A DNA stretch of 49,843 nucleotides, taken from the NCBI GenBank assembly GCA_028705565.1, contig JAQWDH010000008.1:1-49843 (forward strand), given 5' to 3'. Both the position numbers and the translations under genes were made by a program. Positions 1,948 through 47,036 of the stretch are shown here, piece by piece (within the stretch, counting starts at the first letter, position 1; the number at the start of each line of letters is the position of its first letter). Source of the stretch: Patescibacteria group bacterium. Lineage in GTDB: Bacteria; Patescibacteriota; Patescibacteriia; Magasanikbacterales; GWA2-37-8. The notes beneath the pieces were generated by a model. The model searched no databases. It was not told where the DNA came from and worked only from the letters and a program-made list of their open reading frames with translations.

Positions 1948-4008
1948 TTAAGAATTCAATTTTTCTTTTTTATAACCCAAAAACATCCAACTTGCTTCGC
2001 CCTTGAACAACGAAACAGCAAATCTCATTATTAAACGGGTAAAAACAATGGCCGTGAACATACTGATTAGCACACCGATTGCTAAAGTAACCGCGAATCC
2101 CTGCACAAATCCCATGCCGAACCAAATTAAAAACGCGCAGCTGATAAGCGTTGTTATATTTCCGTCGCGAATTGATGTCCAAGCGCGCACAAAAGATTCT
2201 TCCATTGCCGAAGATAAACTTTTTCCGGCGCGAAGTTCTTCTTTCAGACGCTCAAAAACCAAAACATTCGCGTCCACGGCCATGCCAATTGACAATATAA
2301 AACCGGCGATACCCGAAAGCGTCAAAGTAACTCCAAGTAATTTAAAAATAGCCAACGTCAATGCCGTGTAAAAAAACAAAGATAAAACCGACAAAAACCC
2401 GGGGAAACGGTAATAAACAATCATAAATAAAGCGACCAGTAATAAACCGAAAATACCGACTTTAAAACTTTTTTGCAAAGAATCAGCGCCCAAACTCGCT
2501 TCAATGGATTGCTGGCTAATAAGTTCAATCGGAACGGGCAAAGCTCCTGAATTAAGCCGTTGCGACAATAATCTCGCTTCAGCCAAAGTGAAACTTCCGG
2601 AAATCACGGCATTGCCATCAGTAATTGGCTCATTCACACGCGGTATGCTGATTGCCTCTCCGTCCAAAAATATTGCGACTGTTTTGTCCACATTGCGAGT
2701 TGTGATGTCAGAAAAAAGCTGTTTGCCTTCATCGTCAAAAGCCAAACTCACTTGCACTTGACCTGTTTGATAATCTTGCGCCACTTCGGCTCGCTTTAAT
2801 TGTTTGCCGGAAAGACCGGTGGTTTTCCATTCGCTCGCCGGAGGAACAATATCGGTTTTTTCTTTTGTTTTAATAAAAATACGCGACATTGCGTATTCCT
2901 TGATGGTTTCCTCGCCTTTTTTATAAATCAAATGATAACCGAATTTTGTTTCAACAATATCTGAGACGGAACCCAATGTAATTTCAAAAGCGACATTTTC
3001 AAATTCCGACACCATCTGCCCTTTCGTAAACCATCCTAAATCGCCTCCGCGATCACCTGCGCCAGGCTCCGTGGAATATTGCTTTACCATTTCCGCAAAA
3101 TTTTGCGTATTTATTTGGCTCTTTATTTCTTCAATTTTCTTTTTGGCTTGTTCCTTTGTATATTGGGCGTTATCGCAGCTTTCAGCCCCCATATAACAAA
3201 TTAAAAGATGAGCCGCGGAAACCTTTTTTTCTCCGTCGCGGGTTGATATTTTTTTCAATACGTTCAAACCTCCTTGGCTTTTTATCAAATCGTAACTTAC
3301 ATCGCCATCACTGTGATTTTGCGCCCAATCATACAATTCCGGATAATTTTGCTTGGTGATATAACCCAAATCTCCGCCGTTATTTTTGCTCGTTTCATCT
3401 TCAGAATATTTTGTCGCGGCTTCGGAAAAATTCATTCCGTTTTTTATCGCCTTAAGCGCTTCTTTGGCTTTCGCGTTCGCCGCTCCGTTATACTCGTTCA
3501 ATTGGTTTAATTCTTCCTGCGTCAAATCGCGCGGCGGGTCGTTGTTTTCTTCTTTAAATTCCAAAATCGGAGTTTCGCCTATCATTTTTATCGCTTCGTT
3601 TACATTTGATACTCCGGGTAATTCAACAATGATGCGGTAATCATCCCCCACTTTCGTTGTTTGCACCAGCGGCTCGCTCACGCCCAAACCTCCGCGCACC
3701 CGTCTTTCAATAATATCGCGAACGCCCTCCACGGAATCGGCTCTGTCTTTGTCCAAAATATTTTCTGTTTTCGCCTGATAAATAAGATGCGCCCCGCCCT
3801 GCAAATCAAGGCCAAGGTTAAAAGTTTTTTCCGGCAACTTTGGAAAACCTAGATTCATCTTTGTATTAACCCAATCAATTCCTCTGTTCGCGTAAGCCGG
3901 CGCGACCGCCAATACGCACAAAATAAAAACAGCAAGAAATACGCACAATTTCCACCTGTTCTGCGACTTTGTTGAAGAAACGTATATTTGTTTTTTTGAC
4001 ATAAGCAA
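1948..4008 (-). CDS. secD: Protein translocase subunit SecD with two tandem parvulin-like (PpiC) domains inserted in the first extracytoplasmic domain
   Basis: LGLDLQGGAHLIY, SIGMAVDANVLVFERLKEE; insert includes AAHLL...GGDLGWFTKGQMVSEFENVAF...TKFGYHLIYK. Confidence 0.95.
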   Translation of the reverse strand: MLMSKKQIYVSSTKSQNRWKLCVFLAVFILCVLAVAPAYANRGIDWVNTKMNLGFPKLPEKTFNLGLDLQGGAHLIYQAKTENILDKDRADSVEGVRDIIERRVRGGLGVSEPLVQTTKVGDDYRIIVELPGVSNVNEAIKMIGETPILEFKEENNDPPRDLTQEELNQLNEYNGAANAKAKEALKAIKNGMNFSEAATKYSEDETSKNNGGDLGYITKQNYPELYDWAQNHSDGDVSYDLIKSQGGLNVLKKISTRDGEKKVSAAHLLICYMGAESCDNAQYTKEQAKKKIEEIKSQINTQNFAEMVKQYSTEPGAGDRGGDLGWFTKGQMVSEFENVAFEITLGSVSDIVETKFGYHLIYKKGEETIKEYAMSRIFIKTKEKTDIVPPASEWKTTGLSGKQLKRAEVAQDYQTGQVQVSLAFDDEGKQLFSDITTRNVDKTVAIFLDGEAISIPRVNEPITDGNAVISGSFTLAEARLLSQRLNSGALPVPIELISQQSIEASLGADSLQKSFKVGIFGLLLVALFMIVYYRFPGFLSVLSLFFYTALTLAIFKLLGVTLTLSGIAGFILSIGMAVDANVLVFERLKEELRAGKSLSSAMEESFVRAWTSIRDGNITTLISCAFLIWFGMGFVQGFAVTLAIGVLISMFTAIVFTRLIMRFAVSLFKGEASWMFLGYKKEKLNS

Positions 4009-38125: not shown

Positions 38126-40330
38126 TCAGTCAAACGCATTGACCACGCTAACGATTTTGTTTTTTAGGCTGTTTTTATCCAATTCCGCCAATTTATAAAT
38201 CTCTTCGGCCGAGCCGGATTTAAAGTATGAATCAACGCCGATTGTTCTCTCCGAGCAATCAGATGGCAGAATAAACGGATACAAAAACCCTTTCCAGCCG
38301 TTGTGCAGTATGATTGTTTTTTTTCTTTCCTCATCAGGTAAAATTTCCAACGCCTTCCGCGGATTGTTCTTTTGTAATTCTTCAAACAATTGAGGAGAAG
38401 TTACGGCGACTATTTTAACGTCCAGCCCGTCTTGGGCGAGTTCCGGCAAAATTTTTAAAACATTCATCATCATTTGCGCGCCGCTTATCGCCAAAACGAT
38501 TTTTCTTTTTCCGTTATTTTGAAAATCGCGAAAAACATAAGCTCCGTTAATCGCTTCACGCGCCGGAGGAGTCCCGTTCCCCCGTTCAAAAACCAAAGTA
38601 TTTGTTCTCGGCAAAGCCAAAATTATCGGCTCGGCTTTTTTAAGAGCGTAAAAAAGCATTTCCACGCACTCGTTCGCGTCCAATGGTTTGTAAACTTTTA
38701 TCCCGGGCAAAGAGCCGAAAAGAGACATCCAAAAAGTTCCCTGATGCGTTGGCCCGTCTTCTCCTGTTTCGGGCCCGTCGTGCGAAGCCAAAGCGATAAA
38801 AAATCCTTTGTTTTCCGGATTCAAATGATTATTCACCAAAGCCAAACGGATGCAGTGTGAAGATAAAAGAGTAAAAACCGCGTAAGCGCCAAAAACGGAA
38901 ACCGGGTGAAATTCTCCGGGTAAAATATCCTGTGTCATGGCTGACGACATCATCGCCATATTTTGTTCGGCGATTCCGAAACGAATGCCGCGCCCTAAAA
39001 TATTTTTGCGATTTATAATTCCGTAAATTTCTTCCGCCTCGTTCGTCAAAACCGACTTGCTCAAATCTCCGGCGCCAGCATAAAAAAATGCGGTTTTTTT
39101 CATCAACCATTTGAAAAACGCGCTTGATGACTTGCGTATGGAGATTTCTTCGCCGGATTTAAAAATCAATTCCTCTGGCAAAACATCCGGACGCGCAATG
39201 CTTGCCGGATTCACAAGCGGCCTGCCGGATAATTTCTTTTCCATTTTTTTAACCAAAACGCCTTCCGGTTTAATGTTTTCCGCCGCGATTTCCATCCTTC
39301 GCGCTATATACCGCGCGTCTTCTTCATTTAATTTTCCAAAAATATATTCAATATCCAAAATCGTTTTTCCTTCCTCGCCCGGGATGTTAAAACCCAATTT
39401 TTTTACAGCTTTTACATAATCTGAATGGTTCAACATTGAACCGTGCGACCCGGCGGTATTTTCTTTGGCTCCGTAGCATTTGCCTTTTACCGTATGCGAC
39501 AAGACAACTGTCGGTGAATTGTTTTTAAATCCTTTTTTCGCCAGATGATACGCGCGCGCGAGCTGTGACAAATTTTGTCCGTCAACTTCAATCACATTCC
39601 AACCGAAACCGAGCCAATGATTAAGATAACGCGACACGATAACTTCTTCAATCGGACCGTCAACGCCGAAGTGATTGTAGTCCAAACTTACGATTAAATT
39701 TTTCATTCCCGTCGCCGCCAAAACATTGCGCGCCTCATAACTGATTCCTTCCTCGCTTTCAGCGTCGCCGATAAAAACCCAAACTTTCGTGTCCAAACCG
39801 CAAGAGCTATGCGCCAACGCAATTCCTCCGGCAACTGAAAATCCGTGTCCTGACGGACCTGTTGAATAATCAGAAAGAGGATAACAACTTTCAGCGTGTC
39901 CTTGCGGACCGTCAGGGTGGCGGAAACGAATTAAGTCCTCTGGAAAAACGGATTTGATAACAGCGGGAGAAAACTGCCGCCCTTCGCGGCGCATTGTTTC
40001 ATATATCAAAGACAGTCCGGAATATAAAAGCGGCGCGCAATGACCGGCGCTCCAAACAACTCTGTCACGCCCGGGATCTTTCGGGTCCAAAGGATTAAAG
40101 GCTAAAACTCCGCTGAAAATCAAAGACAAAAATTGTTCAACTTTTGAACTGCTTCCGCCCGGATGTCCCGATTGCGACGCTTCCACAGTCGCAAAAATCA
40201 ATCCACGCAAAATCTTGGCGAACTTCTCAATTTTTTTAACATCAAATCCGTCAATCGCGGTTGATTTTTCCTTTCGCAAATCAACATACTCCCCTTCAAC
40301 GGATTTTGAATTTTTTATTTTAAAAACCAT
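38126..40330 (-). CDS. tkt: Transketolase
   Basis: SGHPGGSSSKVEQ, IGDAESEEGISYEA, RFGIAEQNMAMM, DGPTHQ. Confidence 0.93.
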   Translation of the reverse strand: MVFKIKNSKSVEGEYVDLRKEKSTAIDGFDVKKIEKFAKILRGLIFATVEASQSGHPGGSSSKVEQFLSLIFSGVLAFNPLDPKDPGRDRVVWSAGHCAPLLYSGLSLIYETMRREGRQFSPAVIKSVFPEDLIRFRHPDGPQGHAESCYPLSDYSTGPSGHGFSVAGGIALAHSSCGLDTKVWVFIGDAESEEGISYEARNVLAATGMKNLIVSLDYNHFGVDGPIEEVIVSRYLNHWLGFGWNVIEVDGQNLSQLARAYHLAKKGFKNNSPTVVLSHTVKGKCYGAKENTAGSHGSMLNHSDYVKAVKKLGFNIPGEEGKTILDIEYIFGKLNEEDARYIARRMEIAAENIKPEGVLVKKMEKKLSGRPLVNPASIARPDVLPEELIFKSGEEISIRKSSSAFFKWLMKKTAFFYAGAGDLSKSVLTNEAEEIYGIINRKNILGRGIRFGIAEQNMAMMSSAMTQDILPGEFHPVSVFGAYAVFTLLSSHCIRLALVNNHLNPENKGFFIALASHDGPETGEDGPTHQGTFWMSLFGSLPGIKVYKPLDANECVEMLFYALKKAEPIILALPRTNTLVFERGNGTPPAREAINGAYVFRDFQNNGKRKIVLAISGAQMMMNVLKILPELAQDGLDVKIVAVTSPQLFEELQKNNPRKALEILPDEERKKTIILHNGWKGFLYPFILPSDCSERTIGVDSYFKSGSAEEIYKLAELDKNSLKNKIVSVVNAFD

Positions 40331-40333
40331 AAA
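40247..40333. repeat. Transketolase 5'-end segment, duplicated at 42583-42669
   Basis: 86/87 identical by manual alignment; first 80 nt identical. Confidence 0.9.
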
Positions 40334-40372
40334 ATTTTACATTGATAAGTATACATCAACCGATATATATTT

Positions 40373-41059
40373 TTAGCTCTTTAAATTTACAAGGTGAATA
40401 AACTTGTCTAAAAATTTTTTTAAAGAAAATTCGTTTTGAAGTATTTTTTTTGTTTCGGCAGAAAAATCAAAGTCATTATAACTTACAAGTTTCGGATTGT
40501 TATTTTTGTCAAAATCCAACAAACAAACTCCAATTAAGTCGGGTTTGTGCGGGAAATCCATGTCTTTAAATAATTTTATGTATTTTTGTAAATCTTTTTC
40601 ATTAATAATTTCAATTTTTTGTTCTTTTCCTCGTAAATTTCCTTTGTTTTTTGAATAATATGGCGTATGTCCGCGCAATACCAAAAAATGGGCAAAACCT
40701 ACGCCCTGTCTCCTGATGTTTGCCGTCTCTCCCATGAGATTTTCAAAATAATTATTTGCATTCTGTTTGTAGTTTGACGTGACGAATTTAAAACTAACAG
40801 TTGCCACGATTTTTTCTTTTTTGAATATTGCTATATCAAGATCTTTCAAATAATATTTTCCGTCAAACGTCGCTTCTTTACCGTCGCCAATTCCCAATGA
40901 TTTGATAGAAAAACTTTTTCCGAGCTTATTTAAAATTGTTTCGGATAAAAATTTGTGAATTGGCACTAATTTTTTTATGCTTCTGGCGCCGCCTTTCTTA
41001 TTATAAGCCTTAAAGGACGCGCTGATTGCTGATAAAAATTTACTGCCTATCTGACCCAT
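40373..41059 (-). CDS. Putative type II restriction endonuclease, cassette 1
   Basis: DGKYYLKDLDIAIFKKEKIVATVSFKF (PD-(D/E)xK-like), NYFENLMGETANIRRQG; directly downstream of a cognate-looking methylase. Confidence 0.6.
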   Translation of the reverse strand: MGQIGSKFLSAISASFKAYNKKGGARSIKKLVPIHKFLSETILNKLGKSFSIKSLGIGDGKEATFDGKYYLKDLDIAIFKKEKIVATVSFKFVTSNYKQNANNYFENLMGETANIRRQGVGFAHFLVLRGHTPYYSKNKGNLRGKEQKIEIINEKDLQKYIKLFKDMDFPHKPDLIGVCLLDFDKNNNPKLVSYNDFDFSAETKKILQNEFSLKKFLDKFIHLVNLKS

Positions 41060-41073
41060 ATGATTGTTGGTAA

Positions 41074-42534
41074 TTAAAATAAAGCAGGTTGTGTTTTAAA
41101 AAATTGAGGATGTACAAAATCTTTCAGAAAACTTTTGGCGTATGATTTATAACCGCCACGATAACTCTTTGATACTGAGCTGATATGTTCTTTCATTAGG
41201 TCGGAGTTTAAAGCGTCGCACAGTTCATAAAGATCTATACTATTTTTTGGTTTGACACAATACCCGGCATAGAAGCTCGCATTTTCATCTTCAACCACAA
41301 AAAATCTTGGAGAGATGTTCATGGTACTGGTTATAATTTTTTTGCCAAAACTGGTTTTAAGACCTTGGTTTCGTCCAAAAGCGTAAAATTCTTCATAATT
41401 TTTACCGCCCCCCTTATCTCTCATTGCTAAAATATTCTTGTGATTAAGGAAATACTTATATGCTTCAGGGTATTTTTTTTTAAAAGTATCATGATTAATT
41501 ATTTTTTCGTTCTTATACGGGAAAATCAAAAAAAGATTTTGGCTCATACCTTTATATGTAGATGCCTTGATGATTGGTACGCACAAATTTTTTTCTATTT
41601 TATATTCGCCAAAATAGTGATATTGGTTGTCACTTTTGTCTGGTGAAAAAATATAAATATCATCTTTAAGAGTGGCGATTCCGTAGTGAATGTCTGCCAC
41701 CTCTTGAAGCGTAGAATATTTTTTGTTAAGTTTAACTACCTTGTCTAAATATTTTTGGTCAAAAAATTCCCATCGTTCTGTCCGCATGTGTTGGATTGAT
41801 ATTTTTTTAAATTCAATATTTTGAAAATCATTTTTAAAATTTTCCGCATACAAAAAGCCATTGGTTTTTTCTTTTTGCAAGAGTGTAATTGCGGTGTATG
41901 TCGTTGCGTCTTTAAAAATTTGCCAATGATCAAAATTTACGATTTTTGTCAAGTGTGGCAGCATCAAATTGCGTAAATTTTTGCCGGCGGCAGAATAAAA
42001 ATGAGAATTAGGTGTAATGAAAACAATTTTTCCGTTGTCTTTTAGTAATTTTAAAGCTCGCTCAAAGAAACAATAATATAAATCAATTGAACCATTTGAG
42101 GCTGTTATAAAATTATTTTGCAATTGTTCTTTTCTGCCGTTAAGATTTTGAATACGGACATAAGGCGGGTTGCCAATTATAAAATTAAATTTCTCATTAA
42201 AATTGTGGAAACAAAAATCATCATCTATTTCATTAAACTTGGTGATTTTATTTTTTGATAATTTTTGCAAGTTTTGTTTGGTTTTTTCTATATAATCTGA
42301 CGATAAATCAATAAAATAAATATTTTCTTCTATAACTTTGTTTATGGGCTTACCGGATAATTTTGCCAATTTTTTTGCCGCGATTATTGTGAAAACACCT
42401 TCGCCACAACCGGCATCCAATACCTTTTCTTTTCCTGTGATTTTTTGACTATTTAACGCTTCGCCAACCATAAAATCAGCCACCCATTCGGGGGTAAAAA
42501 CAACGCCGTTTTCTTTTTTTATTTTTGCGTTCAT
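41074..42534 (-). CDS. N6-adenine DNA methyltransferase (type II, Eco57I/TaqI-like), cassette 1
   Basis: VLDAGCGEGVFTIIAAK, IIGNPPYVRIQNLNGRKEQL. Confidence 0.9.
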   Translation of the reverse strand: MNAKIKKENGVVFTPEWVADFMVGEALNSQKITGKEKVLDAGCGEGVFTIIAAKKLAKLSGKPINKVIEENIYFIDLSSDYIEKTKQNLQKLSKNKITKFNEIDDDFCFHNFNEKFNFIIGNPPYVRIQNLNGRKEQLQNNFITASNGSIDLYYCFFERALKLLKDNGKIVFITPNSHFYSAAGKNLRNLMLPHLTKIVNFDHWQIFKDATTYTAITLLQKEKTNGFLYAENFKNDFQNIEFKKISIQHMRTERWEFFDQKYLDKVVKLNKKYSTLQEVADIHYGIATLKDDIYIFSPDKSDNQYHYFGEYKIEKNLCVPIIKASTYKGMSQNLFLIFPYKNEKIINHDTFKKKYPEAYKYFLNHKNILAMRDKGGGKNYEEFYAFGRNQGLKTSFGKKIITSTMNISPRFFVVEDENASFYAGYCVKPKNSIDLYELCDALNSDLMKEHISSVSKSYRGGYKSYAKSFLKDFVHPQFFKTQPALF

Positions 42535-42583
42535 GGGTATATTATAGCAAAAATCTTACTTTTCCCAAAATCTTCCCTCCTCT
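42514..42583. repeat. Second copy of the LtaS-like 3' end, promoter and methylase start (= 44721-44790)
   Basis: 70/70 identical by manual alignment. Confidence 0.93.
42541..42549 (-). promoter_or_regulatory. Extended -10 promoter TGCTATAAT, 6 nt before the cassette-1 methylase ATG
   Basis: Minus strand TTTTTGCTATAATATACCCATG. Confidence 0.55.
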
Positions 42584-42666
42584 CCGTCAATCGCGGTTGA
42601 TTTTTCCTTTCGCAAATCAACATACTCCCCTTCAACGGATTTTGAATTTTTTATTTTAAAAATCAT
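42556..42666 (-). pseudogene. Chimeric 36-codon mini-ORF: transketolase codons 1-28 fused in frame to the LtaS-like C-terminus
   Basis: MIFKIKNSKSVEGEYVDLRKEKSTAIDG|EEGRFWEK*. Confidence 0.85.
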
Positions 42667-42712
42667 AAATTAAAAATGAATGTCCGGAACAATGTCCAGA
42701 ACTTAAAATTTT

Positions 42713-43624
42713 TTATTTTAAATCTAAAATAAGATTTTCAAAACCAACTGTATTTACCCAATAATTATTAGGATTACTATTAAGAAATTTTTTTATTTCT
42801 TTTCTTTGCGTGGTTACCTTGTCTCCATATCCATTATCGCCAAGTAAAATATTGGAGTACTTGCCGTCTAAAAAAGAAATGAAAGAAACATTATTTTTTT
42901 CAGTCAATCCCAAAATCTCTATCAATTCTGATATTTGCTTATCTTGTCCGCCGCCGGAAGTATTAAGATGTTTTGCTTCGCAGAGCAAAATTTTATTTTT
43001 TACTTTGATTATTAAATCAAGTCTCTTGTTTTGCTTTTTGGTTTTAATTTTTACGTCTAAATTTTTGCGTACATTTTTTAAGTTAAATTTTTTAGAAAAT
43101 TTTACTACGCAATAATTAGTTTTAAAAAAATTATCCCAATCAAAAACTTCCTTAAATCCTTGTTTTTCTAAAATATGGACGAGCTTGTTTTCTCCGCATT
43201 TTCCTTTTTTACGAGATGAATTCGTGTCCAATATCGCCTGCACCCATTCTTCCGGCGACATTTCATTTAATATTCTTTTGGCAAAATATCTTTCAGTAAT
43301 TTTTTTCAGCAGATTTATTTCTTTTTTTGCTTCACCGATAATATTATCACAAGCGTTTACAAAACAAGCGAATTCGGAGCAGTTGGAGTATTTACCGATA
43401 ATTTTTGATAACTCTAAAAAATATTTATCAACCACGGTCGGTTTTTCTTTTTTACTTCGCAATGTTCTTATTGTAATTAAAATATTTTTTATTTCTTTGG
43501 TATTTTTAATGTATTTATTCAAATCCGGGTGCTTTTCGTCAAATACATAAAAATCATCAAGTAATTTTTCTTGATGATTTTTTGATATTTCAAAATAATG
43601 CAGGTTGTCTTGAATTTTTTTCAT
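42713..43624 (-). CDS. Putative type II restriction endonuclease, cassette 2
   Basis: KRLDLIIKVKNKILLCEAKHLNTSGGGQDKQISELIE (D...ExK); overlaps the end of a methylase ORF. Confidence 0.78.
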   Translation of the reverse strand: MKKIQDNLHYFEISKNHQEKLLDDFYVFDEKHPDLNKYIKNTKEIKNILITIRTLRSKKEKPTVVDKYFLELSKIIGKYSNCSEFACFVNACDNIIGEAKKEINLLKKITERYFAKRILNEMSPEEWVQAILDTNSSRKKGKCGENKLVHILEKQGFKEVFDWDNFFKTNYCVVKFSKKFNLKNVRKNLDVKIKTKKQNKRLDLIIKVKNKILLCEAKHLNTSGGGQDKQISELIEILGLTEKNNVSFISFLDGKYSNILLGDNGYGDKVTTQRKEIKKFLNSNPNNYWVNTVGFENLILDLK

Positions 43625-44741
43625 AATAAATAAGGTTTAAAAATTTATAAGCAAAGTCAAAAGATATCCTTTTGCGATTATTGTCTCTAAAATTAGTAAG
43701 AAAAAATGAAAAATATTTTTCACGATTGGCTGATAATTGGTTATTAAATTTATTCATTAATTCAATTTGTTCATTGATAGATACTTCTTTTTTAAAAATC
43801 AAATGAGCCATATTTCGCGAGGTATTTTTTCCGACAAGACCTGCTATCTTATACTTTCTTATATCTTCAAGCTGTATTTTTTTGCCGTTTTTACTGTCTA
43901 TGGCTCTTAAAAATAAAATGTTTTTTTCAAGTAATTTTTTAATGCTGTCGCTTAATTTTAATATTTTTTTATCTTTGATATTCTGCAACGCAATTTCCAC
44001 CTTATACTCTCCGGACTTTAAATAATCCTCCGTAAGACGAAATACGCCTAATTCATTTTTAGCATCTTTTATTTTATAAATAAATTCTCCGCCAAACTGC
44101 CATCCTGATTTTTTTTCAAGTGTTAATTTAATTTTTTTATTTTCAGGGTATATCGTGGCGTTTATAATGTTTTTTTCGGATATTTTTTGTTTTCTTTTAA
44201 AATAAAATGAAATTACATTGTAAGTTGTATCGTCAAAAACTTGTTCCGAAAAAATATTTAATTTTATAATTTCAAATTTTGCAAAAAATAATTCTCTGAT
44301 TTTTTTTGAATTTTCCGCGCATAAAAAATTTAATGGCACAATAATAATGCCCTCCTCGCAATTTAAAATTGAAAAGATGGAAACTTGGTACAAATCTTCA
44401 AAGTTGGAATTTTTTCCAGAAAAAAATTCTTTCTTAATTTCTTTTGTGGCTTTATTTTTATGTAAGTATGGCGGATTGGTGCAAACGAATTTATAATCTT
44501 TTGGCGAATTTATGGAATCATTTAAAAAGACGTTTTGTTCATCAATATAATTTTTATCATAATCAAAACCTGTAACTTTTTTACATTTATTGCTTTTTGA
44601 CCAACTTAACAAGTCCTGATTACCGGCAAATGGATCTGTAATTTCTTTGTTTTTAACAAATTCACCGAATCCTTGCAATATGCAGTCGGAATTGGTAGTA
44701 AAAAATTGGCCTAAATTGCGTTTTTTTATTTTTGCGTTCAT
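43590..44741 (-). CDS. N6-adenine DNA methyltransferase, cassette 2
   Basis: LGQFFTT, ITDPFAGNQDLLSW, FVCTNPPYLHKNKATKEI. Confidence 0.85.
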   Translation of the reverse strand: MNAKIKKRNLGQFFTTNSDCILQGFGEFVKNKEITDPFAGNQDLLSWSKSNKCKKVTGFDYDKNYIDEQNVFLNDSINSPKDYKFVCTNPPYLHKNKATKEIKKEFFSGKNSNFEDLYQVSIFSILNCEEGIIIVPLNFLCAENSKKIRELFFAKFEIIKLNIFSEQVFDDTTYNVISFYFKRKQKISEKNIINATIYPENKKIKLTLEKKSGWQFGGEFIYKIKDAKNELGVFRLTEDYLKSGEYKVEIALQNIKDKKILKLSDSIKKLLEKNILFLRAIDSKNGKKIQLEDIRKYKIAGLVGKNTSRNMAHLIFKKEVSINEQIELMNKFNNQLSANREKYFSFFLTNFRDNNRKRISFDFAYKFLNLIYYEKNSRQPALF

Positions 44742-44790
44742 GGGTATATTATAGCAAAAATCTTACTTTTCCCAAAATCTTCCCTCCTCT
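44721..44790. repeat. LtaS-like 3' end, promoter and methylase start; duplicated at 42514-42583
   Basis: 70/70 identical by manual alignment. Confidence 0.93.
44748..44756 (-). promoter_or_regulatory. Extended -10 promoter TGCTATAAT, 6 nt before the cassette-2 methylase ATG
   Basis: Identical to the cassette-1 promoter. Confidence 0.55.
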
Positions 44791-47036
44791 AACATTCGCC
44801 TTTTCCATTTGTAAAATTCCATAAATTCACACAATGACAGCGGTGTGGACGCGGAGGACGAAAAATCTTCTGAACCGCAAGTTAAACCGCTCGGAACCGC
44901 GTAATCCGTTTTTATTTCCCCTTTTTCATCGGCCTGATTGATAAAAAGTCCAAACTCGTGCATACCCAAAAGATTCGGGTATTTCGCCCTGTCGTCAAAA
45001 ATAGAATGTCCTTCAAAAGAATTCGGGACATTAATGTCAAGCATTTGTAAAATCGTTGGCGCGAAATCCAAACCTGAAGAATATAAATCAACTTCTTTCG
45101 GCAAAACACTGTTCGGGATATACATCAAAAAAAGGTTTTCGTCATAAAAATTCATTTTATTATATTCATCAGGAAAAGTTTTTTTGTCGTAAGCGGTCGG
45201 AAAAACCGCGTGGTCCGCAATGGCGATAAAAATCGTATTTTCCGACAGCGGACTTGTTTTAAATTCGTCCCAAAATTTTCCGAACGCGTCGTCGGTTGTG
45301 TGAATCGCGTTGAAAAGAGCTGTTTTTCCTTCGCGATACGGAATCGCGTCTTGCGCTGAATTAAACGGAGGGTGCGTGTCAACAGTTGAAATCATTGCCA
45401 AAAACGGCTCGTCGGCTTTTTCGTTTATAATTTTTTTGAACGCCGGAAACATCTGATGGTCTGAGTATCCCCACGCCAAAGGTTCGCCTTGAATATATTT
45501 TTTCAATTCATCCGTGCCATAACTTTCATCCACGCCCATGCTTGCAAAAATAGTATCTTTATTCGCGAAATTTTTTTCCACCGCCGTAACATAAACTCCG
45601 TATTTATATCCGCCGTATTCTTTCAAAATTTTCGGCAAACATAACAAATGGTGGCTCTTTAGCCGTTTTTCCTCGGTGATTTCGTTGTGACCGGTGGGCG
45701 GAAGAAATGAACACAATTGAGACAAGAGTCCTGTCACTGTCGGGGTAGAAGCATTGAAATATTTTTTAAAAATCGTGGTTTGCGGGTCTTCCGCCATTTT
45801 TTTAAGATTTGGCGTCAAAGCGACCGAACGCGGATTATACACGTCCGTCAAACGGGAGGAAAAAGATTCCAAAAACACGATAATGATATTCGGACGCTTT
45901 TCAGCGAAACTTTCAGGCAATAATTTTTTATCCGACGAGTCATAAATTTGTTCTTTGTGATTCACAAAAAATTCGTTCAAATCATAATCAAGCCCGAACC
46001 GTTTCAATTTTTCCAAAATTATCGGAGACAATGCCGCGTTTTCGTCCGCGCCTTTGAAATAATCATAAAAAGATTTTATAACGATTGATTCCGGCGTGTT
46101 TCGGAAAGAAGAAATGCCGACAAGCGAAAGTACCGCCACGCCAATTAAAGAAAAATTGTAAAAAAGCCAATAACGCTTTGGGGCGAGCAGATGCGCGCGC
46201 GCGAATTTTTTGAAAATAAAAATCCAACAGAATAAAAAAATCGCAAAAAGAACGAACAAATACCAATAATTCCAAATTATTTTCCCTCCGCCTTCGGCAT
46301 GCTGTAAAATGACAGGACTTACATAAAGTCCGGCTCCGAACAAAACTCCCAAATTCACAAACCACGCGAATAAAACCGCGGTAAAAAATATGGTCCAAAA
46401 AGACAATAAAAAATATCTCAAAAAATTTTTTGTCTGCCAATAAATTAAGCTCGCCACGCCGAATCCCAAAAGCCAAAACATCGTCATTGACCACGCGCGG
46501 AACAAGGAAATGTTAAAAATTTTCGCGTTCGGGTCCAAAATGTAATAACTGCGCGCGAGATATTGAAAAATTCCGGAAACCAAAAAAATGAAATACAAAA
46601 GCAAAAAAACCGCGCGGTTCACGATGAGCCAATTTTTCGCGGCCGGGTGCAATGATAAAAAATAATGAAACCGCAAAAACAAAATCAAAATAACCGCGGA
46701 AACATAAAAAAAACTCAACAGTTCAAAACGCGAAAAAAATACAAGAAAAATAAGAGAAAAAACGAAAAATAAATTATCCAAAAAACCGCCAAATTCGTTT
46801 CGCCAAAAAGGATGCCGCCTATATTTTTCCGTGAGATGAATAAAAACAAATTTTAAAAAACGGAAGCCAAGATACGCGACCGCCCATGTTGCAAGCGAGA
46901 TAACCACAAACCGCCAGTGAGGGCGGTACTTTATGTGATACCAATTCCAACCGGCGGAAATGATAAAAGAACCGACAATGGCATAAGAGCCGGACTTTAT
47001 TTTCTTAATAAAATTTCCAATGTTTTTAAAATTCAT
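44763..47036 (-). CDS. LtaS/MdoB-like sulfatase-superfamily phosphoglycerol transferase
   Basis: N-terminal TM bundle; NIIIVFLESFSSRLTDVY, NASTPTVTGLLSQLCSFLPP, FIAIADHAVF. Confidence 0.88.
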   Translation of the reverse strand: MNFKNIGNFIKKIKSGSYAIVGSFIISAGWNWYHIKYRPHWRFVVISLATWAVAYLGFRFLKFVFIHLTEKYRRHPFWRNEFGGFLDNLFFVFSLIFLVFFSRFELLSFFYVSAVILILFLRFHYFLSLHPAAKNWLIVNRAVFLLLYFIFLVSGIFQYLARSYYILDPNAKIFNISLFRAWSMTMFWLLGFGVASLIYWQTKNFLRYFLLSFWTIFFTAVLFAWFVNLGVLFGAGLYVSPVILQHAEGGGKIIWNYWYLFVLFAIFLFCWIFIFKKFARAHLLAPKRYWLFYNFSLIGVAVLSLVGISSFRNTPESIVIKSFYDYFKGADENAALSPIILEKLKRFGLDYDLNEFFVNHKEQIYDSSDKKLLPESFAEKRPNIIIVFLESFSSRLTDVYNPRSVALTPNLKKMAEDPQTTIFKKYFNASTPTVTGLLSQLCSFLPPTGHNEITEEKRLKSHHLLCLPKILKEYGGYKYGVYVTAVEKNFANKDTIFASMGVDESYGTDELKKYIQGEPLAWGYSDHQMFPAFKKIINEKADEPFLAMISTVDTHPPFNSAQDAIPYREGKTALFNAIHTTDDAFGKFWDEFKTSPLSENTIFIAIADHAVFPTAYDKKTFPDEYNKMNFYDENLFLMYIPNSVLPKEVDLYSSGLDFAPTILQMLDINVPNSFEGHSIFDDRAKYPNLLGMHEFGLFINQADEKGEIKTDYAVPSGLTCGSEDFSSSASTPLSLCEFMEFYKWKRRMLEEGRFWEK

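What the first reader, a model, noticed from the sequence alone, without database searches (positions are those of the whole stretch)
40247..44790. Two R-M cassettes stacked at one locus, separated by a second copy of both flanking gene ends
On the minus strand the order is LtaS-like tail, M2, R2, transketolase head', LtaS-like tail', M1, R1, transketolase. Each R-M pair is thus bounded upstream by the same LtaS-like 3' end (42514-42583 = 44721-44790, 70/70 nt) and downstream by the same transketolase 5' end (40247-40333 vs 42583-42669, 86/87 nt). The simplest reading is that the LtaS-like/transketolase junction is an R-M integration hotspot and two alternative alleles were joined. This could occur by Campbell-type integration of a circle carrying [tail-RM2-head], or by tandem duplication followed by cassette replacement and deletion. 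The near-identity implies a recent event. This would be R-M accretion without an integrase or transposase.
Basis: partly seen in the sequence, partly recalled or inferred. Interest (0 to 1): 0.85.

Follow-up and report, generated by a model that had tools for sequence, protein, structure and literature searches.

The report
Two restriction-modification alleles stacked in tandem
A tiny uncultured bacterium seems to carry, side by side, two different DNA-cutting defence systems that were alternative versions of the same chromosomal slot; an imprecise recombination that repeated the slot's edges apparently joined them, with no transposon or integrase involved.

Summary
In a Candidatus Magasanikbacteria (Patescibacteria) MAG, two complete M-R gene pairs lie in tandem between an ltaS-like gene and a transketolase gene (tkt). 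A partial second copy of both flanks separates them (86/87 and 70/70 nt). The joint between the extra tkt head and the extra ltaS tail shares only one base, so it is illegitimate, and it has the shape of a tandem-duplication joint.
M1R1 (R1 Tsp45I-like) and M2R2 (Eco57I-type methylase) are different systems. Each has an 84-88% protein-identical relative in another family, at another locus. DNA homology starts 12-15 nt before M and ends at the R stop, so each moved as a bare gene pair. All four genes are intact (dN/dS 0.06-0.08). No integrase or transposase gene was recognised in the window.
Among nine relatives with ltaS and tkt linked, five have nothing between them and four have unrelated non-R-M genes. 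The junction tolerates insertions but is not shown to be an R-M hotspot.
Best reading: two alternative R-M alleles of one slot were put in tandem by additive transformation or tandem duplication plus allele swap. This is a new instance of known processes. A strain-chimeric assembly cannot be fully excluded without long reads.

The parts
44763..47036 (-). ltaS-like sulfatase-family membrane protein (757 aa), full-length upstream flank
   Evidence: Pfam Sulfatase 1.5e-29; orthologue linked to tkt in nine relatives
44721..44790 (-). First copy of the 70-nt repeat: last 8 codons and stop of ltaS, spacer with TGCTATAAT, first 7 codons of M1
   Evidence: sequence
43590..44741 (-). M1, N6-adenine methyltransferase (383 aa; DPFAG...NPPY motifs)
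   Evidence: 88% aa relative in G390; two of four family members match Pfam Eco57I, best 1.2e-7; dN/dS 0.06
42713..43624 (-). R1, Tsp45I/DpnII-like type II endonuclease (303 aa; D...EAK core), overlaps the M1 end
   Evidence: Pfam Tsp45I 8e-8, all four family members match (best 4e-62); dN/dS 0.08
42670..42712 (-). R1-to-head' spacer with an 11-nt direct repeat TTCYGGACATT; resembles the 3' flank of the M1R1 relative
   Evidence: local alignment to L163, shuffle p = 0.007; two motif matches in the window, 0.07 expected
42583..42669 (-). tkt head': extra copy of the first 28 codons of tkt plus 3 nt upstream
   Evidence: 86/87 to 40247-40333
42583..42583 (.). Novel joint between tkt head' and ltaS tail', one shared base
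42514..42583 (-). Extra copy of the 70-nt repeat: ltaS tail', spacer with TGCTATAAT, first 7 codons of M2
   Evidence: 70/70 to 44721-44790
41074..42534 (-). M2, Eco57I/TaqI-type N6-adenine methyltransferase (486 aa)
   Evidence: Pfam Eco57I 5.6e-28; PADLOC MTase_II 8.6e-108; 84% aa relative in G032; dN/dS 0.07
40373..41059 (-). R2, putative type II endonuclease (228 aa); no database family
   Evidence: follows an M2-type methylase in G032 and G362, with a related partner in G035; conserved E62/D75/K91; dN/dS 0.07
40247..40333 (-). Native copy of the 87-nt repeat at the start of tkt
38126..40330 (-). Transketolase (734 aa), intact downstream flank
   Evidence: Pfam/NCBIfam transketolase; 54-64% aa to orthologues in the same family

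Best explanation
The ltaS-tkt intergenic region is a slot into which whole-gene cassettes can be exchanged by recombination in the conserved flanking genes. Two different type II R-M pairs, M1R1 and M2R2, were alternative occupants in this lineage. They were put in tandem when one allele was added next to the other instead of replacing it. One side was joined by ordinary homology (in tkt or ltaS). The other was joined illegitimately, with one base of overlap, between codon 28 of tkt and the last 8 codons of ltaS. This is either additive (merodiploid-forming) transformation, in one step, or tandem duplication followed by allele swap. Each cassette thus has its own copy of the promoter-like TGCTATAAT and M start. 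The locus remains able to revert to a single R-M by RecA recombination between the repeats (deleting 2,336 or 2,207 bp). Shown: the repeats, the one-base joint, intact genes under purifying selection, horizontal movement of both pairs as bare gene pairs, empty or otherwise-occupied slots in relatives, ComEC and DprA in the genome. Inferred: transformation as the vehicle, order of events, activity of both systems, co-residence on one chromosome.
For: Repeats and one-base joint. No other copy of the structure in the assembly. M1R1 relative: 84% DNA identity over window 44753-42713; M2R2 relative: 80.6% over 42549-40372. Both start 12-15 nt before M, end at or within 1 nt of the R stop, and lie at unrelated loci in other families, while tkt between genera of the window's own family is only 54-64% identical at protein level. 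dN/dS 0.06-0.08 for all four genes. Empty slot in five relatives and unrelated occupants in four. The shared 36-nt M 5' block is nearer the M2 relative (5 differences) than the M1 relative (9); likelihood ratio about 8-47 for M2 origin, so M1 probably entered an M2-type allele. ComEC and DprA genes present. Precedents: a 3,276-bp two-allele tandem duplication without flanking repeats among pneumococcal transformants (PMC3784515), and R-M plasmid integration at 1-3 bp of identity (PMC3031569).
Against: No genome of the same genus with an R-M-only or M2R2-duplicated allele is held. None of the nine comparable junctions carries an R-M. No reads are available: the 81-nt exact overlap in the tkt head could let an assembler splice an M1R1 strain to a strain with a duplicated M2R2. 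Competence has not been tested in this organism.
Confidence: 0.65

Rival explanations
1. Strain-chimeric assembly: one strain has ltaS-M1R1-tkt, another has a tandem duplication of M2R2 (or a circle with the same joint), and the assembler passed from one to the other in the 81 identical bases of the tkt head.
For: The window is from a 38-contig assembly with 2.95% estimated contamination; the only mismatch between the tkt-head copies lies on the M1R1 side of the 81-nt identity, as a strain variant would.
Against: A simple mix of two single-allele strains cannot produce the head'-tail' joint, which shares one base only; some molecule must carry it. No second copy or alternative path is seen in the assembly.
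Confidence: 0.18
2. Campbell-type integration of a circle carrying [ltaS tail'-M2R2-tkt head'] by homologous recombination in one repeat.
For: Predicts exactly the final sequence; circles of this form could arise by loop-out of a duplicated locus.
Against: Needs a free non-replicating circle that itself carries the one-base joint; no plasmid or phage functions are on the cassette, and no plasmid match to M1 or R2 and only matches below 60% identity to M2 were found.
Confidence: 0.08
3. [quoted passage not shown]
For: R-M systems are known to insert with long, variable target duplications (PMC3031569; PMC4978471).
Against: The inserted segment also carries the flank of the same locus from the other side (ltaS tail' with M2R2, or tkt head' with M1R1), which a de novo insertion would not bring; the M2R2 relative elsewhere lacks it.
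Confidence: 0.07
4. Transposon, integron or integrase-driven cassette insertion.
For: None beyond the presence of direct repeats.
Against: No transposase, integrase or attachment-like gene was recognised among the listed ORFs of the 50-kb window; cassette homology begins 12-15 nt before M and ends at the R stop; the repeats are pieces of the host genes themselves.
Confidence: 0.02

Closest known systems
Minimal mobile element (Saunders and Snyder 2002; Neisseria)
   Different: Here two R-M cassettes are present at once with an extra partial copy of both flanks; exchange is seen between genera, not between strains; no other R-M allele was found at the slot.
Insertion of R-M systems with long target duplication (Nobusato et al. 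2000)
   Same: R-M pair bounded by direct repeats of host sequence tens of bp long, no transposase.
   Different: The added segment carries the second flank of the same locus, which points to joining of two alleles and not to a fresh insertion.
Transformation-generated merodiploids / additive transformants (PMC3784515)
   Same: Two alleles of one locus in tandem, including a 3,276-bp duplication without flanking repeats.
   Different: Those were laboratory transformants of Streptococcus pneumoniae; here the alleles are different gene pairs and the event is inferred from sequence.
Type II R-M systems: Tsp45I-like (R1) and Eco57I/TaqI-type methylase (M2)
   Same: M1, M2 and R1 carry the expected family signatures and M-R gene order.
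   Different: R2 matched no family in Pfam, NCBIfam or PADLOC above threshold and no PDB sequence; target sites unknown.

Membership tests
Minimal mobile element | Flanked by two genes conserved in related genomes | tested here: met
   ltaS and tkt linked in nine relatives of the same family
Minimal mobile element | Different whole-gene cassettes, or none, in different genomes | tested here: met
   five empty, four with unrelated genes; genus level, not strain level
Minimal mobile element | Chromosomal incorporation solely through homologous recombination | tested here: inconclusive
   No mobility gene recognised near the locus, but one joint is illegitimate with one shared base
Insertion with long target duplication | Direct repeats of target sequence flank the inserted R-M | tested here: met
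   87- and 70-nt repeats
Insertion with long target duplication | Inserted segment lacks sequence from the far side of the target | tested here: not met
   Either reading of the insert contains the opposite flank's end
Transposon or integron cassette | Transposase or integrase, terminal repeats or attC-like site | tested here: not met
   none recognised in the window; relatives' homology ends at gene ends
Tandem duplication / merodiploid | Order A-X-B'-A'-Y-B with a novel B'-A' joint | tested here: met
Tandem duplication / merodiploid | Both copies on one chromosome | not testable with these tools
   no reads held
Type II R-M | Adjacent methylase and endonuclease genes with family motifs | tested here: met
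   M1R1: Tsp45I-type R1, Eco57I-type M1 relatives. M2R2: M2 clear
Type II R-M | R2 is an endonuclease | tested here: inconclusive
   Conserved linkage to M2 and E/D/K residues, but no family match and only a low-confidence model (pLDDT 52)
Type II R-M | Cleavage and methylation activity | not testable with these tools
   needs expression or methylome data

The most novel reading that the evidence does not exclude
Adding one R-M allele next to another at the same gene junction, by recombination between alleles, is a recurrent way for naturally competent Patescibacteria to accumulate R-M systems, with the short flank repeats leaving the cell able to shed either system again and to export it as a circle.
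Probability: 0.12. Interest if true: 0.55.

Novelty: new member of a known kind. Interest (0 to 1): 0.36.

Why it matters
R-M genes are known to move without obvious mobility genes, but the intermediate steps are rarely preserved. Here a one-base joint and two partial flank copies record how two competing R-M systems came to share one slot. The two systems should protect different DNA sites, so the arrangement widens defence in a roughly 1-Mb genome, and it makes clear predictions: two methylation motifs, and single-allele deletion products.

Tried and rejected
TTCYGGACATT near 42679-42701 as a DNA-uptake sequence: only the two adjacent copies occur in the window (k-mer scan), so rejected. R2 fold: single-sequence AlphaFold model of low confidence and no PDB match at E <= 0.001; its helix-strand order is compatible with a PD-(D/E)XK core but proves nothing. 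M1, M2 relatives in IMG/VR: none; in plasmids and phages: M2 only below 60% identity, M1 and R2 none in plasmids. The exact joint in viral contigs: none. A truncated tkt start caused by R-M insertion: the window's N terminus is shorter than most, but another short one exists (L066), so not claimed. The tkt dN/dS was mis-framed and is disregarded. Furuta et al. 2010 was not held.

Full report
What was checked. The longest exact repeat in the window is 80 nt against 16-20 nt in random sequences of the same composition. The gene order on the minus strand is ltaS - M1 - R1 - tkt head' - ltaS tail' - M2 - R2 - tkt. ltaS and tkt themselves are full length. The structure occurs once in the 931-kb, 38-contig assembly.

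Anatomy of the repeats. The 70-nt repeat holds the last 8 codons and stop of ltaS, a short spacer with TGCTATAAT, and the first seven codons (MNAKIKK) of the following methylase gene. The 87-nt repeat holds the first 28 codons of tkt and 3 nt before them. At 42583 the extra head runs into the extra tail with one shared base: the joint reads GATTGACGGA-GAGGAGGG, where native tkt continues GATTGACGGA-TTTGATG and native ltaS reads GCGAATGTTA-GAGGAGGG. This is the joint expected from a tandem duplication whose ends lie in codon 28 of tkt and 8 codons before the end of ltaS. It cannot be made by merely mixing two single-allele strains.

Where it lives. The transketolase is 54-64% identical to Candidatus Magasanikbacteria orthologues in the same family; no other genome of its genus is held. 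Among nine relatives with ltaS and tkt linked, five (L061, L064, L069, L110, L044) have nothing between them, and four (L059, L060, L062, L065) have unrelated genes there, none recognisably an R-M. So the junction tolerates insertions, but no evidence makes it an R-M hotspot. The 50-kb window is a core-gene region and no transposase or integrase was recognised among its listed ORFs (read from the translations, not an exhaustive family scan).

The two systems. M2 is an Eco57I/TaqI-type N6-adenine methylase. R1 is Tsp45I/DpnII-like. M1 has the motifs of an N6-adenine methylase, and relatives match Eco57I. R2 has no family, but homologues of it follow an M2-type methylase in three other genomes (85, 40 and 36% identity) and share conserved E62, D75 and K91; its endonuclease role is inferred. 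The closest relative of M1R1 is in another family (G390), 84% identical in DNA over exactly 44753-42713. That of M2R2 is in another family of the same order (G032), 80.6% identical over exactly 42549-40372. Neither relative lies between ltaS and tkt. Both pairs therefore move as bare gene pairs. dN/dS of 0.06-0.08 for all four genes against these relatives says that both methylase and endonuclease functions have been kept.

Order of events. The 36-nt block from TGCTATAAT to codon 7, identical before M1 and M2, differs from the M2 relative at 5 and from the M1 relative at 9 positions. A simple likelihood comparison favours an M2 origin by about 8 to 47 to 1, so M1R1 probably replaced M2R2 in one allele through this block. 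On the other side, the R1-tkt spacer resembles the 3' flank of the M1R1 relative (shuffle p = 0.007), so M1R1 brought its trailing sequence up to the tkt start. The R2 spacer shows no such resemblance to the flank of its relative. The swap made alternative alleles; a later or intervening event put both in tandem.

Mechanism. Three routes give the same sequence: additive transformation (homology on one side, one-base illegitimate joining on the other), tandem duplication followed by swap of one copy, or integration of a circle. The first needs the fewest steps once two alleles exist. The genome encodes ComEC and DprA, and competence is proposed for Patescibacteria in general (PMC12455944). Precedents are a 3,276-bp two-allele duplication without flanking repeats in pneumococcal transformants (PMC3784515) and R-M plasmid integration at 1-3 bp of identity (PMC3031569). 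R-M insertion with long target duplication is the nearest named R-M process, but it does not explain why the added segment carries the other flank of the same locus. Minimal mobile elements (PMC3898611) describe the slot well.

Limits. Without reads, a chimera of one strain carrying M1R1 with another carrying a duplicated M2R2 remains possible, because the tkt head copies share 81 identical bases. Strain-level comparisons are missing. Activity of either system is untested. The likelihood comparison rests on 36 positions and two relatives.

Verdict. The hotspot claim is not. It is a well-preserved instance of known processes, of moderate interest.

Noticed in passing
window 1948-4008 (-): A SecD homologue carries two PpiC-type peptidyl-prolyl isomerase stretches inside its periplasmic part (Pfam Rotamase_3 1.3e-41, two stretches, with SecD/SecF domains on either side).
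   Followed up: partly
L140 2257-4104 (+), i.e. G000:C21: A LexA-like repressor (LexA DNA-binding plus S24 peptidase) is fused to an N6-adenine DNA methylase; next to it lie an unassigned ORF overlapping its end, a small HTH protein and a serine recombinase-like ORF. This suggests a methylase under SOS-type autocleavage control.
   Followed up: partly
L137 524-2569 (G035:C15): An M2 orthologue (83-85% aa) is paired with a different R (40% to R2), next to a GAPDH-like gene fragment upstream and a cysteine desulfurase-like gene downstream: partner exchange within an R-M pair. The contig has an N gap in the M gene.
   Followed up: partly
L163 4465-8104 (G390:C84): The M1R1 relative is followed directly by another methylase (N6_N4_Mtase 5e-58) and a small ORF, possibly a second R-M pair.
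   Followed up: partly
window 43590-43607 and 41074-41091 (-): Both methylases, although from different families of type II system, end in QPALF (QSALF in the M1 relative), which resembles a sliding-clamp binding motif (from general knowledge, not tested).
   Followed up: no
window 44742-44756 and 42535-42549 (-): TGCTATAAT lies only 6 nt before the M start codons, suggesting near-leaderless M transcripts; similar TATAAT elements precede M in the relatives at other loci.
   Followed up: partly
window 42679-42701 (-): An 11-nt direct repeat TTCYGGACATT in the R1-tkt head' spacer, expected 0.07 times in the window by chance; function unknown.
   Followed up: partly
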